Below, in pieces: positions 28,731-34,189 of a stretch of 34,189 nucleotides of DNA. The DNA is from Candidatus Dadabacteria bacterium (lineage in GTDB: Bacteria; Desulfobacterota_D; UBA1144; Nemesobacterales; Nemesobacteraceae). A model generated the notes under the pieces. It made no database searches. It was not told the origin of the DNA and worked only from the letters and a program-made list of their open reading frames with translations. The position numbers and the translations under genes were made by a program. The stretch spans positions 1 through 34,189 of the forward strand of contig JAPOQQ010000064.1 of the NCBI GenBank assembly GCA_026710625.1, read 5' to 3'. How positions within the stretch are numbered: position 1 is the stretch's first letter; the number at the start of each line of letters is the position of its first letter.

Positions 28731-29280
28731 TTGCAGTGAATCTCTTTTTCCTGCGCCGGTTTCTTGCACTGCCAATAGTGCCGTCCGGCAGCCCGTATTT
28801 CGAAAGACTTAAGTGGCAGATCGCGATCGCGAGTGCGTCTGACTCGTCCGTGCTTTGAAATTCGCTGACTCCGAGCATGTAGGAAAGCATTTTCTGCATC
28901 TCTTCCTTGCCTGCTCTTCCTTTGCCGGTCAGGGCGAGCTTTACCCTAGTGGGTGCGTACTCGCTTACCGGGATTCCTCTCTGCGCCGCCGCCAGGATCG
29001 CTATGCCCCTCGACTGGCCGAGCTTTATGGCGCTTCTCGCGTTTTTGGCGAAAAACATTTCCTCGACTGATACGACCGAGGGAGCGTAATCGTCGATTAC
29101 CCTCAGGATTCCGACATAGATATCGTTCAGTCTTTCAGAAGCGGAGTTTCCGGGTGCAGGAGTGATTGTTCCACTGGCTACGTAGCTTAACCGGTTTCCT
29201 GCGCCGTCCACGACCCCGTAGCCGCAGGATCTTGATCCGGGGTCGATTCCCATGACCCTGGTGTCGGAAATCTTATCCAA
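28714..29280 (-). CDS. ruvC: Crossover junction endodeoxyribonuclease RuvC
   Basis: RuvC resolves Holliday junctions as a dimer. The 188-residue protein keeps all four acidic catalytic residues in register with E. coli: Asp13 in MGIDPGS, Glu73 in SVEEMFF, and Asp145 and Asp148 in [14 protein letters not shown]. The C-terminal tail ([16 protein letters not shown]) is basic. The start overlaps the end of yebC by 8 nt and the end overlaps ruvA by 17 nt, a tightly packed operon. Confidence 0.97.
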
Positions 29281-30019
29281 TTGCCTCGAGTAACTGCTCG
29301 TCTATGTCGAAGTTGGCGTACACGTTCTGAACATCGTCGCTGTCTTCAAGCGCTTCCATCAGCCTTATCATGTGTTCTGCGTCCCGGCCCTCGATTCTAA
29401 CGTTTGTCTGCGGTATCATGGTGACTTCGGCTGATTCGTACTGTATTCCGGAGTCGGAGACCGCTTTCTTTATGGTTTCGTAGTTATCCGTGGGGGTTAT
29501 AACCACTATATCGCTGTCCTCGGTGCGCACGTCGTCAGCCCCCGCGTCTATCACCAGATCGAAGAGCGTATCCTCATCAACCGAGTCTCCGGCAAACGCG
29601 ATTCTTCCCTTAAGATCGAACATCCACGCAACACAGCCGTTCTCCCCGAGCCCTCCGCCGTGTTTTGTGAATATTCTTCTTATTTCGGAGACGGTCCTGT
29701 TTCTGTTGTCAGTAAGGGTCTTTACGTATACGGCACTTCCGCCGGGTCCATACCCTTCGTAAAATATCTCGTTGTAGACTACTCCCTCGATGTCCCCGGT
29801 GCCCCGTTTTACGGCCCTCTCTATCGTGTCGTTGGGCATGTTGGCGCCCTTCGCGGTCGCTACAGCGGTGCGAAGACGCGGGTTGGATTCCGGGTCGCCT
29901 CCCCCTTCCTTAGCGGCAACCGTAAGCTCCCTGATAAGCTTGGTGAATATTTTTCCCCGCTTGGCGTCAACTGCGGCTTTTCTGTGTTTTATGTTTGCCC
30001 ATTTGGAATGACCTGCCAT
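29273..30019 (-). CDS. yebC: YebC/PmpR-family protein (TACO1-like)
   Basis: The 248-residue protein begins [32 protein letters not shown], followed by [30 protein letters not shown] and [28 protein letters not shown], the unmistakable YebC signature. Members were described as transcriptional regulators. Recent work assigns TACO1/YebC-like proteins a role in translation of proline-rich stretches. The SD is an AGGGGGGTGAG run 5 nt before the ATG. TATACT (complement of 30066-30071) is a -10 candidate without a clear -35. It heads the ruv operon. The IS110 element inserted about 100 bp upstream of its start. Confidence 0.95.
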
Positions 30020-30223
30020 ATTAGCTCACCCCCCTGTTTCTCCATTTCTGCATATTCTTCCTCAAAGTATAACCGAAAATTCCCTCAAATTGCCACAGCG
30101 CTTCGAAAACTCCCACGATGGACTTCCTGTCTTTCATCAAGCCTAAATTTTATGTATAGAGCGAATTTTTTTTAAGATTCCTCCTCGTTTTTCTCTTTGA
30201 CGATTTCATTTCTCCGTTTTTGT

Positions 30224-31471
30224 TCACGCGGTATCCCGTAAAGGTTTGTTGAACTCCTTGTCAAACAACTCTCCTTTTTCCAGGATGACGCGGGCGACGA
30301 ACAAAAGACGATCGCACACGGTACGAACGGATCTGCAGTAACCATGACCCTTTCCCCGAAGCTCTTCGTATTTTGTCCTGCTTACTGGATCATGCTTTAC
30401 GGCTATTCCTCCCAGAACATGAAACGCGGCTGAGAGGCTCCTGCACACAGCCCTTCGCTTTATGACCAGCTTTGTCTTGCCAGATTGTCTCGTCACCGGA
30501 GCCACACCCCCGAGACATCGAAGCGCCGCGAAGTCCCGTCGGCGCACAAGACTCCACGCCTCGGCAATCAGCGTCGCGAGCACTACAGTCCCCACACCTG
30601 GAATGGATCTGAGTATCTCGATATCGGTTGGCCCTTCTCCCTCGGTCCTGAGTTTTGAGTTCATGGTCTCAATAACTCGCCTGATAGAGTCCTGGGTCTG
30701 CTTGAGCTGACGGTCTACCACCTTCATGCGTTCAATGATAGTTCTTATATGCTCAATACAGCTTTGTACTGTTGCCTCGCTGAGTTCTATCTTCTTGCCA
30801 CGCAATATCCTGAGCGCTTCCTTCGCGTCAATACGCCTCACCCTGTTGCGTCTGAGAAGTTTCTGTACCGTTGAGACCCTTTTTCTCTTTGCCGCACAAG
30901 GACAAGGCATAAGTTCCCATAATTCCAGATGCCATGGTCTTACCGCGCTGCCCAGAAGTTCGCCGAACTGTGGGTAATACCTCCACAGCAGTGCGCGAAG
31001 ACGGTTTACGCAACGGATGCGTTCCGAAACGAGTTCCTCCCTGGTTCTGTTGAATTCCCGCAGGATTATGACATTGGAATCCTGGAGTTCAATGCGGCGG
31101 AAGTGAGAACGATCCGTTCTGAGCGTCGAGGCAAGCACCAAGGCGTCTTTTCTGTCATCCTTGGCTCCTGAGACGCAGAACCTGTCCCTGAAACGATCAA
31201 GCTGCTTCGGATTTATGGAATAAACCATAAAGCCCTGCTCACAAAGACTTTCCACGACAGGGCCGTGATTTACCTCTATAGCCACGGCTATGTCATAGGC
31301 CTCAGAGTCTGAGATTTTTCTCATCCACTGGGTCATTTCCAAAAGACCGCCTCCTGAGTGTGTGAAGTTTTTTTCTCCGATGACGGAACCTTCGTGATCA
31401 ACGACGCAGACCTGGTGAGAACTTCGTCCCCAGTCAATACCTGCAAAAAATAGAGATTCATGATTGTTCAT
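30224..31471 (-). CDS. IS110-family transposase (DEDD serine recombinase, bridge-RNA guided)
   Basis: The 415-residue recombinase has the RuvC-like DEDD domain: Asp13 in FAGIDWGRSSH, Glu66 in VAIEVNHGP, and Asp106 and Asp109 in GAKDDRKDA. A long coiled-coil linker covers about residues 225-275. The Transposase_20 domain at about 285-400 (LRSIPGVGTVVLATLIAE) carries the catalytic serine candidate Ser330 in VAPVTRQSGKTK. IS110 enzymes use a structured RNA from the element's own non-coding end to pair with target and donor. The start ATG at 31471 has a strong SD AGGAGGT (complement of 31482-31488), just after the 3' closing stem of that RNA. The gene appears intact. Confidence 0.95.
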   Translation of the reverse strand: MNNHESLFFAGIDWGRSSHQVCVVDHEGSVIGEKNFTHSGGGLLEMTQWMRKISDSEAYDIAVAIEVNHGPVVESLCEQGFMVYSINPKQLDRFRDRFCVSGAKDDRKDALVLASTLRTDRSHFRRIELQDSNVIILREFNRTREELVSERIRCVNRLRALLWRYYPQFGELLGSAVRPWHLELWELMPCPCAAKRKRVSTVQKLLRRNRVRRIDAKEALRILRGKKIELSEATVQSCIEHIRTIIERMKVVDRQLKQTQDSIRRVIETMNSKLRTEGEGPTDIEILRSIPGVGTVVLATLIAEAWSLVRRRDFAALRCLGGVAPVTRQSGKTKLVIKRRAVCRSLSAAFHVLGGIAVKHDPVSRTKYEELRGKGHGYCRSVRTVCDRLLFVARVILEKGELFDKEFNKPLRDTA

Positions 31472-31529
31472 GTAAATTAATACCTCCTATAAATTCGGGT
31501 TAACCGTGATGCTTGTCGGATCCAGTACT

Positions 31530-31544
31530 GGCGCTCTCTGGCGC
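31530..31544 (-). repeat. Inter-guide spacer repeat, donor-loop copy
   Basis: On the + strand this is GGCGCTCTCTGGCGC, differing from the target-loop copy at one position. It separates the left and right donor guides in the bridge RNA. The shared spacer shows that the two loops have the same internal architecture. Confidence 0.8.
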
Positions 31545-31599
31545 GAACTTCCTGTTGGGCATTTATCACGGCGCTTGACCGAGGCGCTTGTCCATCGTA

Positions 31600-31614
31600 G
31601 GCGCTCTTTGGCGC
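31600..31614 (-). repeat. Inter-guide spacer repeat, target-loop copy
   Basis: On the + strand this is GGCGCTCTTTGGCGC, nearly identical (14/15) to the donor-loop copy at 31530-31544. In RNA sense it is GCGCC-AAAGA-GCGCC, placed exactly between the left and right target guides. GCGC is self-complementary, so it can form a short hairpin inside the loop. Confidence 0.8.
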
Positions 31615-31740
31615 AGGAAGGAGTTAGGCAGCTCTCGGTCAGGCAACCCGTGAATTAATTAAACTCGATTTTTGTTTTTTCGCTCGATTTAAGTTTTTAG
31701 AAGAGTACTGGACAGGGAGTGCTGTTGAGACCTAAATCTA

Positions 31741-31770
31741 TTGACATTTTTTCTCATTCGTGTATTTACT
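31741..31770 (+). promoter_or_regulatory. Distal candidate promoter of rho (P1)
   Basis: TTGACA at 31741-31746 is followed after 18 bp by TTTACT at 31765-31770 (4/6). It lies 28 bp outside the IS110 left end, so the insertion spared it. Transcripts from here would carry the structured segment 31811-31889. Confidence 0.4.
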
Positions 31771-31810
31771 AAAATGTGGTTGTAGCCGCAGAGTCCTAGT
31801 GTTAAGTGCG

Positions 31811-31889
31811 CTTGTCAGGCGGGAGCGGGGTTTTCATGGAAAAGCGGTGTGGGTTTTCTGCGGAGCAAAGGTTCTTTTCTCCTGACAAG
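31811..31889 (+). other. Structured segment of the rho upstream region
   Basis: A perfect 9-bp inverted repeat, CTTGTCAGG (31811-31819) and CCTGACAAG (31881-31889), encloses 61 nt. Within it TTTTC-ATG-GAAAA can form a small hairpin. The segment lies between the two candidate rho promoters. It could be a leader regulatory structure or a separate small RNA. The whole 358-bp gap from the IS end to rho (31714-32071) has no supported protein gene. Confidence 0.45.
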
Positions 31890-31903
31890 TTCGGTTTTAG
31901 ATA

Positions 31904-31932
31904 TTGACAAGCTTGTTGCGCGGCAATACTAT
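31904..31932 (+). promoter_or_regulatory. Proximal promoter of rho (P2)
   Basis: TTGACA at 31904-31909, exactly 17 bp, then TACTAT at 31927-31932 (4/6). The predicted start is near 31939, giving a leader of about 130 nt before the rho ATG. This is the best promoter match upstream of rho. Confidence 0.6.
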
Positions 31933-31939
31933 TAACTGT

Positions 31940-31958
31940 ATCAGTTGTACTGATTTTT
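31940..31958 (+). promoter_or_regulatory. Hairpin followed by five Ts at the predicted 5' end of rho mRNA
   Basis: ATCAGT (31940-31945), loop TGT, ACTGAT (31949-31954), then TTTTT. The stem begins within about a base of the predicted P2 transcription start. It could cap and protect the 5' end of the mRNA, or act as a weak terminator for readthrough from P1. Confidence 0.4.
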
Positions 31959-32071
31959 CACTTTGAACTCTTAAGCGCGTGCTATTGTCGCATTCCTGAC
32001 ACTTCAAAAGATTTCGATTATTTTTTGAACCAAGAGTTTTAACAATGCCTTAATTCAAGGAGTTTCACTGT

Positions 32072-33397
32072 ATGGCAAAAGTCTCTAAAGCGGAAGCTGC
32101 AGATGCTGTCCAGAAAAAAGAGGAGCAGAAAAACGGAAACGGCAAGCTGCTCTACCTAAATGATCTCAGGGCGAAAAAGCCCTCGGACCTGATAAAGCTT
32201 AGCAGGCAGGCCGGTATTGAAGATACCGCCAGAATGGCGAAACAGGATCTTATCTATTCCCTGCTCAAGGCACAGAGTGAAAGCCATGGTTCCATAATAG
32301 CCGAGGGGGTACTTGAAATCCTGGCCGAAGGTTATGGTTTCCTAAGATCTCCCAAATACAGCTATCTGCCGAGTCCGGACGACATATACGTTTCGAAATC
32401 CCAGATAAGATCTTTCAGCCTGAAAACCGGGGATACGATAAGAGGTCTTGTGAGGCTCCCGAGAGAAGGGGAGAAGAACCTGGCCCTTCTCAAAATAGAG
32501 GAGGCAAACTACGACTCTCCCGAGGTATGCAGGCAGAGAACGCCTTTTGAGGGACTCATTCCCCTTCACCCGGAAAGGAAAATAGATCTTGAATATGAAA
32601 AAGGCGAGTTCTGCTCGAGGGTGATGAATCTTTTCGTGCCCGTGGGGAAGGGGCAGAGAGCCGTGATAGTGGCTCCTCCCCGCACCGGCAAGACCATAAT
32701 AATCCAGAGAATAGCCAATGCGATAACCGAGAATCACCCCGAAATTGAGCTTTTCGTTCTGCTCATAGACGAGCGCCCGGAGGAAGTCACCGACATGCAG
32801 AGGTCGGTCAAGGGAGAAGTCATAAGTTCGACTTTCGACGAGCCGGCCCAAAGGCACATACAGGTCGCCGACATGGTGATCGAGAAGGCTAAAAGGTATG
32901 TCGAACACGGAAAGGATGTCGTTATCCTGCTAGACAGCCTTACCAGGCTTGCAAGAGCGAGCAACACGGTGACTCCCGCAAGCGGAAAAGTACTCTCCGG
33001 AGGAATAGAGGCAAACGCTCTTCAACGACCCAAGAGATTCTTCGGGGCGGCGAGAAACACCGAGGAGGGAGGGAGCCTTACTATAATAGCTACCGCCCTT
33101 ATAGATACCGGAAGCCGCATGGACGAGGTTATCTTCGAGGAGTTTAAGGGAACGGGGAACCTGGAGGTATACCTTGACCGCCGCCTTGCGGAGAGAAGGG
33201 TGTTTCCTGCAATAGATCTTCAAAGGTCGGGAACCAGAAAGGAAGAGCTTCTTATCCCGGAGTCCGAACTTAACCGCATATGGCTTCTTAGAAAAATCCT
33301 CAATCCGATGAACACCACTGAAGCAATGGAATTTCTGCTTGACAAGCTTCGGGGAACTAAAAGCAACACGGAATTTCTGAATATGATGCACCAGTAA
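32072..33397 (+). CDS. rho: Transcription termination factor Rho
   Basis: The 441-residue Rho hexameric RNA helicase has an extra charged N-terminus of about 30 residues. The RNA-binding cold-shock-like domain follows ([38 protein letters not shown], about 79-114). The ATPase core has Walker A APPRTGKT (201-208), [28 protein letters not shown] and [13 protein letters not shown]. The secondary RNA-binding Q/R-loop regions [26 protein letters not shown] are intact. SD AAGGAG lies 9 nt before the ATG. The long upstream leader fits the autoregulated rho genes of other bacteria, though no leader peptide is identified here. Confidence 0.97.
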
Positions 33398-33610: not shown

Positions 33611-34093
33611 CTATCGTTGCGTACTCTTGCCCGCGCTGGCTTTTTGCCTGACCCTACGTACTATGGGTTCAGTAATCTTGCCTTTGCTCACCGTTAATCC
33701 GCGTTCTGATAAACACTCCCCGGTAAGACGGAGCAACTCTTCGGTCATTTGATGTTTCAGTAGAAAGTGGCGGAATTTGCAGATAGTAGTCTCGTCCGGA
33801 ATCCTCTGCATTGACACCCCGGCAAAACGGCGCATGGACTCAATATCATAAAGGCTTTCTTCCATTGCCGGATCCGACAAGCCGTACCATTGCTGCATCA
33901 GATAAATTCGCAGCATAACCTTGGCCGGAATAGGTCGGCGTCCCTTACGCGACTTCGGATATTTGCTTAGTATAGGTTCAAGCAGCAGTTTCCACGGCAA
34001 TATCCCGTCCATTTTTTCAAGGAACCGCTGTTTACGGGTTACTTTCTTTTTGTTTTTGTAGGCTAAATCAGAAAAACTGGGCTTATTCGGCAT
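33611..34093 (-). pseudogene. Truncated IS5-family transposase (N-terminal DUF772 domain only)
   Basis: The 160-residue product matches the N-terminal half of IS5-group transposases: LRIYLMQQWYGLSDPAMEESLYDIESMRRFAG, then IPDETTICKFRHFLLKHQ and LLRLTGECLSERGLTVSKG. Full-length relatives then continue into the DDE catalytic core with a GTIVDATI-like motif. Here the frame diverges (GKITEPIVRRVRQKASAGKSTQR) and stops, so all three catalytic acids are missing. The ATG at 34093 has a GAGG SD 9 nt upstream; the one at 34102 is an alternative with no spacing. The upstream end may lie beyond the window, and no terminal inverted repeats could be paired. Confidence 0.75.
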
Positions 34094-34189
34094 TACCCCC
34101 ATCCTCGCTTCTCTGTAATACTATACCACAGCGACTTGATTGAGATTTATCGCATTGAGTTAGGCCTTTAAATCATAGATACTTAACCC

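What the first reader, a model, noticed from the sequence alone, without database searches (positions are those of the whole stretch)
31496..31650. A fully readable IS110 bridge RNA: four guides matched to both junctions
Seen directly: four short stretches in the transposase's upstream non-coding region correspond to the DNA at the two element ends and the two flanks. The right target guide ACGATGGAC is the exact complement of core plus right flank GTCCATCGT. The left donor guide ACAGGAAGT is identical to right end plus core. The right donor guide AGTACTGGAT pairs with core plus left end GTCCAGTACT (one G-U). The left target guide CTTCCTG matches left flank CTCCCTG with one G-U. Two stems of 8 and 7 bp enclose the target and donor loops, and a 6-bp stem closes the whole. 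Order and strand of the guides agree with the IS621-type bridge model. This is an apparently undescribed, reprogrammable-type guide RNA with a GT core.
Basis: partly seen in the sequence, partly recalled or inferred. Interest (0 to 1): 0.85.

Follow-up and report, generated by a model that had tools for sequence, protein, structure and literature searches.

The report
IS110 bridge RNA, CC core

Summary
Window 30122-31711 is an IS110-group insertion sequence: an open 415-aa DEDD transposase with a structured RNA upstream (31493-31654, minus strand). Fifteen Dadabacteria rows plus four alphaproteobacterial ones share the fold (17 of 40 pairs with two-sided changes, 0/500 shuffles). Taken together, target guides follow their own copy's flanks (0 of 20,000 permutations reach the observed fit, left or right). 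Donor guides covary with the element ends (15 of 16 and 16 of 16 exact). Uninterrupted sites in related genomes confirm insertion.

Two details are wrong. The core is CC, not GT: CC directly precedes the left end in 25 of 28 ends and follows the right end in 12 of 12, while GT before that CC occurs only in the window. The claimed left target guide CTTCCTG is out of register: it uses a base paired in a conserved hairpin. In this copy the left target match is weak (348 of 10,135 background sites do as well).

It is a new member of a known kind (IS621-type bridge RNA). Its interest lies in the CC core, the closed three-way-junction RNA, and natural retargeting within one genus.

The parts
30122..31711 (-). 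Whole IS110-group element, counted with one copy of the CC core (core copies at 31710-31711 and 30120-30121)
   Evidence: Left ends start CC|AGTAC and right ends stop AAGT|CC in relatives; empty sites; coordinates
30224..31471 (-). DEDD/Transposase_20 transposase (recombinase), 415 aa, open reading frame
   Evidence: PF01548 120.4 bits, PF02371 46.6 bits; NF033542 'IS110 family RNA-guided transposase' 163.8 over cut-off 140; D13, E66, D106, D109, S330 invariant in 7 of 7
31493..31654 (-). Bridge RNA, structured part (match of model R1, 185.5 bits; the window row is one of those the model was built from)
31645..31650 (-). 5' side of closing stem CGGGTT (partner 31496-31501)
   Evidence: 4 bp of it in the consensus
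31576..31641 (-). Target-binding loop, stem TGACCGAG/CTCGGTCA
   Evidence: helix 2: 9 of 14 pairs with two-sided change
31615..31625 (-). Left target guide region AACTCCTTCCT; family register puts its CC (31616-31617) on the core
   Evidence: comparison of copies; weak match in this copy
31601..31614 (-). Hairpin inside target loop, GCGC-CAAAGA-GCGC
   Evidence: helix 3, 2 of 4 pairs with two-sided change
31590..31601 (-). Right target guide CCTACGATGGAC; CCTACGATGG pairs with core plus right flank CCATCGTGGG (9 Watson-Crick, 1 G-U)
31504..31571 (-). Donor-binding loop, stem CCGTGAT/ATCACGG
   Evidence: helix 5: 99.0% of cells paired but hardly variable (0 of 7 pairs with two-sided change, 1 of 7)
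31545..31555 (-). Left donor guide ACAGGAAGTTC, identical to right end ACAGGAAGT; over the CC core it reads UC (one G-U, one G-C)
31520..31529 (-). Right donor guide AGTACTGGAT; AGTACTGG pairs with core plus left end CCAGTACT
31712..31720 (-). Left target flank ACTCCCTGT (then core CC)
30112..30121 (-). Core CC plus right target flank ATCGTGGG
30135..30140 (-). -35-like TTGATG near the right end; in the circular form 17 nt from TACTCT (31702-31707) at the left end (inferred promoter)
   Evidence: judged by eye

Best explanation
This is an IS110-group insertion sequence whose upstream non-coding left end encodes a bridge RNA. The RNA is a three-way junction closed by a short stem. The first arm is an internal loop holding a left and a right target guide on either side of a small hairpin; the second is an internal loop holding a left and a right donor guide, built the same way. 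In the excised circle a promoter would form across the joined ends (-35-like hexamer in the right end, about 17 nt, TAC-type hexamer in the left end) and make the RNA (inferred). The recombinase (RuvC-like DEDD plus Tnp serine) would hold the RNA, pair the donor loop with the circle junction and the target loop with the chromosome, and exchange strands at a CC dinucleotide common to both (inferred by analogy with IS621). Insertion leaves one CC at each junction. Shown here: anatomy, conserved fold, the guide-to-flank and guide-to-end relation across copies, the CC core, empty sites. Not shown: transcription, binding, activity.
For: Fold: 40 pairs, 97.8% of cells paired in 15 Dadabacteria rows, 10 pairs with two-sided change, 1/500 shuffles as many; 19 rows with four alphaproteobacteria: 96.3%, 17 such pairs (0/500), 61 two-sided cells against 19.9 in shuffles (0/500). 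The four alphaproteobacterial loci were matched by the model at 64.4-74.3 bits, the next best match in the same DNA being 8.5. Target guides: own-guide fit summed over 16 left and 11 right flanks is 122.0 and 68.5, against permuted 69.4 (sd 8.6) and 44.9 (sd 4.6), 0 of 20,000 each. Donor guides: left donor guide 9/9 identical to own right end in 15 of 16, right donor guide 5/5 complementary to own left end in 16 of 16, over four right-end and three left-end sequence types. Core. Empty sites: the L026 site in L110 (99.3% over 998 bp) and the L009 site in L121 (98.0% over 999 bp) with one CC; the window's site uninterrupted in 8 of 11 genus loci, the other 3 not aligning across it. Transposase.
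Against: The window's own left target guide fits poorly in the family register. At 7 of 16 left and 5 of 11 right flanks at least one foreign guide type ties with or beats the own guide. 3 of 28 left junctions have TC or AC instead of CC. One covariation measure does not exceed shuffles (further pair types: 480/500, 66/500). No expression or activity data. No large 5' stem loop like that of IS621 was seen. The AlphaFold model was too poor to use (mean pLDDT 46.6).
Confidence: 0.95

Rival explanations
1. One reading: bridge RNA with a GT core and left target guide CTTCCTG.
For: In the window GTCC stands at both junctions, so the empty site fits a GT core equally well; CTTCCTG pairs with CTCCCTG over 7 nt with one G-U, and only 17 of 10,135 CC sites do so in that register (91 in any register).
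Against: GT before the CC occurs in 1 of 28 left junctions. Two other empty sites show only CC or TCC shared. The last G of CTTCCTG is paired in the loop hairpin in 19 of 19 rows. Other copies use the register ending in CC or C.
Confidence: 0.05
2. A structured leader of the transposase mRNA (regulatory hairpins), with the guide matches being chance or inherited sequence.
For: The structure lies just upstream of the start codon (31471), where leader RNAs sit.
Against: Guides vary with flanks (0 of 20,000 permutations) and with element ends; a leader role would not predict this. A dual role is not excluded.
Confidence: 0.03
3. A resting or decaying copy: real bridge RNA, but this copy no longer moves to matching sites.
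For: Only one transposase with both domains was found in this incomplete genome, besides fragments, some at contig ends; imperfect left target guide.
Against: Transposase open over 415 aa with five catalytic residues, both ends, stems and donor guides present; a sister copy is present or absent between nearly identical flanks in related genomes, so the lineage has moved recently.
Confidence: 0.25

Closest known systems
IS621 bridge RNA and recombinase (IS110 group; PMC11208160, PMC11208158)
   Same: RNA upstream of the gene; target loop then donor loop; left guides read the bottom strand, right guides the top strand; DEDD plus serine residues; promoter formed across the circle junction (here inferred)
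   Different: CC core instead of CT, where IS621 and its orthologues keep an almost invariant second T; transposase 415 aa against 326 and only distantly similar (phmmer E 1.4e-4); closed three-way junction, no large 5' stem loop seen
ISEc21 seekRNA (IS110 type; PMC11187229)
   Same: Upstream non-coding region; bottom-strand match precedes top-strand match; that paper also describes natural retargeting
   Different: Not compared by sequence here; different target; the present case is seen across many copies in one uncultured genus
Alphaproteobacterial IS110 copies: L132 (pNGR234a), L133 (Methylocystis bryophila p1), L134 (Labrenzia THAF187b), L135 (Sinorhizobium meliloti HM006)
   Same: Same RNA fold, CC at both junctions, right end GTGGGGAGT|CC matched by the left donor guide 9/9 in three and 8/9 in L133
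   Different: 43-47% transposase identity; left end TGTAC or TGTTC instead of AGTAC; in L132 and L133 the transposase is annotated in pieces
IS1111 group
   Same: DEDD transposase family with guide RNA
   Different: There the RNA lies mostly downstream of the gene, with longer subterminal inverted repeats (PMC11208160 section 12); here it lies upstream

Membership tests
IS110 family (DEDD recombinase) | DEDD_Tnp_IS110 and Transposase_20 domains | tested here: met
   NF033542 over cut-off
IS110 family (DEDD recombinase) | Catalytic D11, E60, D102, D105, S241 of IS621 (numbers from PMC11208158) | tested here: met
   D13, D106, D109, S330 line up with IS621 in the HMMER alignment (counted by hand with an offset of 2 in the chain numbering); E66 assigned by motif, 3 residues off in that alignment; all five invariant in 7 of 7
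IS110 group bridge RNA | Structured RNA in the left end with two guide loops | tested here: met
IS110 group bridge RNA | Target guides pair with both strands of own target | tested here: met
   as a set; in the window right side strong, left side weak
IS110 group bridge RNA | Donor guides pair with own ends | tested here: met
IS110 group bridge RNA | Short core shared by both junctions, no further duplication | tested here: met
   CC
IS110 group bridge RNA | RNA expressed, bound and required for recombination | not testable with these tools
   no RNA or activity data
close IS621 orthologue | Core with T at second position | tested here: not met
   core CC
close IS621 orthologue | 5' stem loop before the target loop | tested here: inconclusive
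   only small hairpins predicted in the 63 nt folded from each of 11 copies
IS1111 group | Guide RNA downstream of the gene | tested here: not met
   RNA lies upstream

The most novel reading that the evidence does not exclude
These elements form a separate bridge-RNA lineage spanning Dadabacteria and Alphaproteobacteria. Its recombinase exchanges strands at CC and its RNA is a closed three-way junction. Such enzymes would extend programmable recombination beyond cores ending in T. The core-reading loop of IS621 (E60-A61-T62-G63, whose G63 contacts the core T) reads E-V-x-x here, which might explain the changed core.
Probability: 0.35. Interest if true: 0.55.

Novelty: new member of a known kind. 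Interest (0 to 1): 0.4.

Why it matters
It is a clean test of bridge-RNA rules far from IS621. One genus carries a dozen different target guides that, as a set, follow their own insertion sites, and donor guides that track changed element ends. It offers a natural CC-core set for testing how strict the core is, and it corrects a reading that would have sent an experiment to the wrong exchange point.

Tried and rejected
Rfam: no match at E up to 5 for 29900-32000. AlphaFold on 5 sequences: mean pLDDT 46.6, not used; no fold search was run. A better target for the window's present guides (CTCCTTCCATCGTAG, up to 2 mismatches, 13 genomes): 16 sites, against 30 for the reversed-pattern control, so nothing above chance; one site in the own genome, G000:C123:1577-1591, differs only at the outermost left base and at a position that would be a G-U, and may be worth a look. 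Empty site for the L025 copy: 8 alignments, none across the junction. Background for single sites came from the window outside the element and fetched genus loci (the script named 21; 10,135 CC sites on both strands), not the whole genome. A 5' stem loop: only weak hairpins. IS1111 membership and the GT core were considered and rejected for the reasons given. Literature: full-text searches; no held paper has both 'Dadabacteria' and 'IS110'. One search returned no paper at all. Most subscription journals are not held and supplements were not read.

Full report
What is there. The window comes from a genome whose nearest named relatives found are Candidatus Dadabacteria (5 loci). Between rho (32072-33397, plus strand) and yebC (29273-30019, minus strand; Pfam) lies an IS110-family element on the minus strand. 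Its 415-aa transposase (30224-31471) has both family domains and passes NCBI's cut-off for 'IS110 family RNA-guided transposase'. By sequence its only solved relatives at E up to 0.001 are ISCro4 (9t56) and IS621 (8wt6), both weak. D13, D106, D109 and S330 line up with IS621 D11, D102, D105 and S241 (residue numbers read in passages of PMC11208158). E66 is the likely equivalent of E60, though the printed alignment places it three residues off. All five are invariant in the 7 sequences aligned.

Checking the observation. An RNA of 181 nt over the region folds at -58.1 kcal/mol, z -2.5, 2 of 200 shuffles as good.

Relatives. The transposase finds matches in 11 of 57 genomes of the phylum. The RNA model built from 15 rows finds the RNA in 11 of 57 genomes, all in the window's own genus (stricter filters at that size, so weak matches may be lost). 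Four alphaproteobacterial plasmid copies with 43-47% transposase identity, which I chose from the 15 listed of 978 plasmid records with a match, also carry it at 64.4-74.3 bits, the next best match in the same DNA being 8.5. This fold therefore reaches beyond the genus.

Conserved fold. In 15 Dadabacteria rows 97.8% of 598 cells pair, and 10 of 40 pairs have two-sided changes (1 of 500 shuffles reaches that number; none reaches the covariation score of 0.185). With the four distant rows 96.3% of 757 cells pair and 17 pairs have two-sided changes, which 0 of 500 shuffles reach; this second alignment was fitted to the model, so it leans towards the structure. One measure, the number of further pair types, does not exceed shuffles (480/500 and 66/500). 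The target arm carries most of the covariation; the donor stem (helix 5) is nearly invariant and so says little by itself. The RNA is a three-way junction: closing stem, target arm and donor arm, each arm with an internal loop around a GYGC hairpin. Sliding partners by 1-3 columns drops pairing to 22-37%.

Target guides. I listed 17 insertion sites with 12 guide types. L008 shares L007's site and was merged with it; L019's left flank was dropped because the contig starts there; right flanks were missing for six sites (L011, L018, L028, L002, L044, L045). Small register shifts were allowed alike for own and foreign guides. Own guides scored 122.0 on 16 left flanks (permuted mean 69.4, sd 8.6) and 68.5 on 11 right flanks (mean 44.9, sd 4.6), 0 of 20,000 permutations each. 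Guide types are related to each other, so the permutation is not a strict probability. Site by site, the own guide beat all 11 foreign types at 9 of 16 left and 6 of 11 right flanks; at the others at least one foreign type tied or won. Clear cases are L025/L026 (same guides, two different sites, both matched) and L016.

The window's own target. Right side: score 9.5, foreign best 5.0, 1 of 10,135 background sites as good. Left side: score 6.5, foreign best 5.0, 348 of 10,135 as good, and reached only in a register shifted from that of the other copies; no background site equals both sides. The left guide here is thus the least certain part. Either the insertion tolerated mismatches on the left, or guide or flank changed afterwards. 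Searching 13 genomes for a site fitting the present guides better gave 16 hits against 30 for the control.

The core. Of 33 printed left-end pattern matches I set aside 5 that are not element ends (two inside the RNA, three elsewhere). Of the 28 left, 25 have CC directly before AGTAC or GGTAC, 2 have TC (L002, L020) and 1 has AC (L047); L007 and L008 are the same site. GT precedes that CC only in the window. Twelve of 12 right ends stop at GAAGT and continue CC. A looser look found 4 further left ends (L005, L055, L060, L093), all after CC, and 3 further right ends (L003, L025, L026), all before CC. Two empty sites bear this out. G023 holds the L026 site uninterrupted as TTTGTTTCC-TACACTTA (99.3% over 998 bp), and G026 holds the L009 site as ATTATACC-TGATATG (98.0% over 999 bp), each with one CC. 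At the window's own site GTCC is shared by both junctions, so that site alone cannot tell GT from CC. It is uninterrupted in 8 of 11 fetched genus loci, gap-free around the join only in L071 and with diverged sequence in the others; 3 did not align across it. In IS621 the core is CT with an almost invariant T, and GT, AT and TT cores were tolerated (PMC11208158 section 8, read whole).

Donor guides. Over 12 Dadabacteria and 4 alphaproteobacterial copies, the left donor guide equals the own right end over 9 nt in 15 of 16 (L133 has 8 of 9), and the right donor guide is complementary to the first 5 nt of the own left end in 16 of 16. The ends differ (ACAGGAAGT, GTAGGAAGT, GTAAGAAGT, GTGGGGAGT; AGTAC, TGTAC, TGTTC), so this is covariation and not mere conservation. 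Copies without a right end at hand (L002, L011, L018, L028) were left out; L002 has lost three bases in this guide.

Expression. Joined as a circle, the ends put a -35-like TTGATG 17 nt before TACTCT in the window. In printed junctions of 11 Dadabacteria and 4 alphaproteobacterial copies a similar hexamer stands at about that distance (judged by eye, no scan). IS621 and ISEc21 are reported to form such a junction promoter (PMC11208160, PMC11208158 and PMC11187229, passages). Transcription here is inferred.

Comparison with what is known. PMC11208160 (abstract; sections 6, 7, 12, 19, 38; first part of section 43; passages) reports bridge RNAs predicted in 85.7% of IS110-group elements and covariation of guides with targets and donors. 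PMC11187229 (passages only) reports natural retargeting. So the kind, the guide logic and natural retargeting are published. What is added is this lineage, its CC core, and a within-genus set of retargeted copies with empty sites. I could not see the published supplements, so I do not claim that CC cores or this fold are unpublished.

Verdict. A real IS110 bridge RNA, well supported by comparison, with the core and the left guide register wrongly assigned in the finding; a new member of a known kind.

Noticed in passing
window 33611-34102 (-): Another transposase fragment (Pfam DUF772) near the window's end; IS5-type by recall.
   Followed up: partly
L028 (G017:C1), left flank at about 1238-1257: The flank itself contains CCAGTACCCCCC, a second left-end-like sequence, as if the element had inserted beside or into another copy's end.
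   Followed up: no
L011 and L033 (G026:C1 1418368-1419231 and 1411630-1412070): 5' and 3' parts of what looks like one copy, separated by about 6.3 kb: an element probably split by a later insertion.
   Followed up: no
L019, L021, L028; L132, L133: Copies with C-rich left target guides sit in runs of C.
   Followed up: partly
L063, L064 and G022:C21: Three contigs of one genome begin with the same 51 bases of the element's left end: the assembly seems to break at unresolved copies, so copy numbers are lower bounds.
   Followed up: no
L020 and L002: Left junctions with TC instead of CC; in L020 the right guide also fits best one base out of step, as if exchange had slipped by one.
   Followed up: no
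L005, L055, L060: Three left-end remnants in three genomes share the flank GTCTGTAAC before the end, so they may be one old insertion inherited by related genomes.
   Followed up: no
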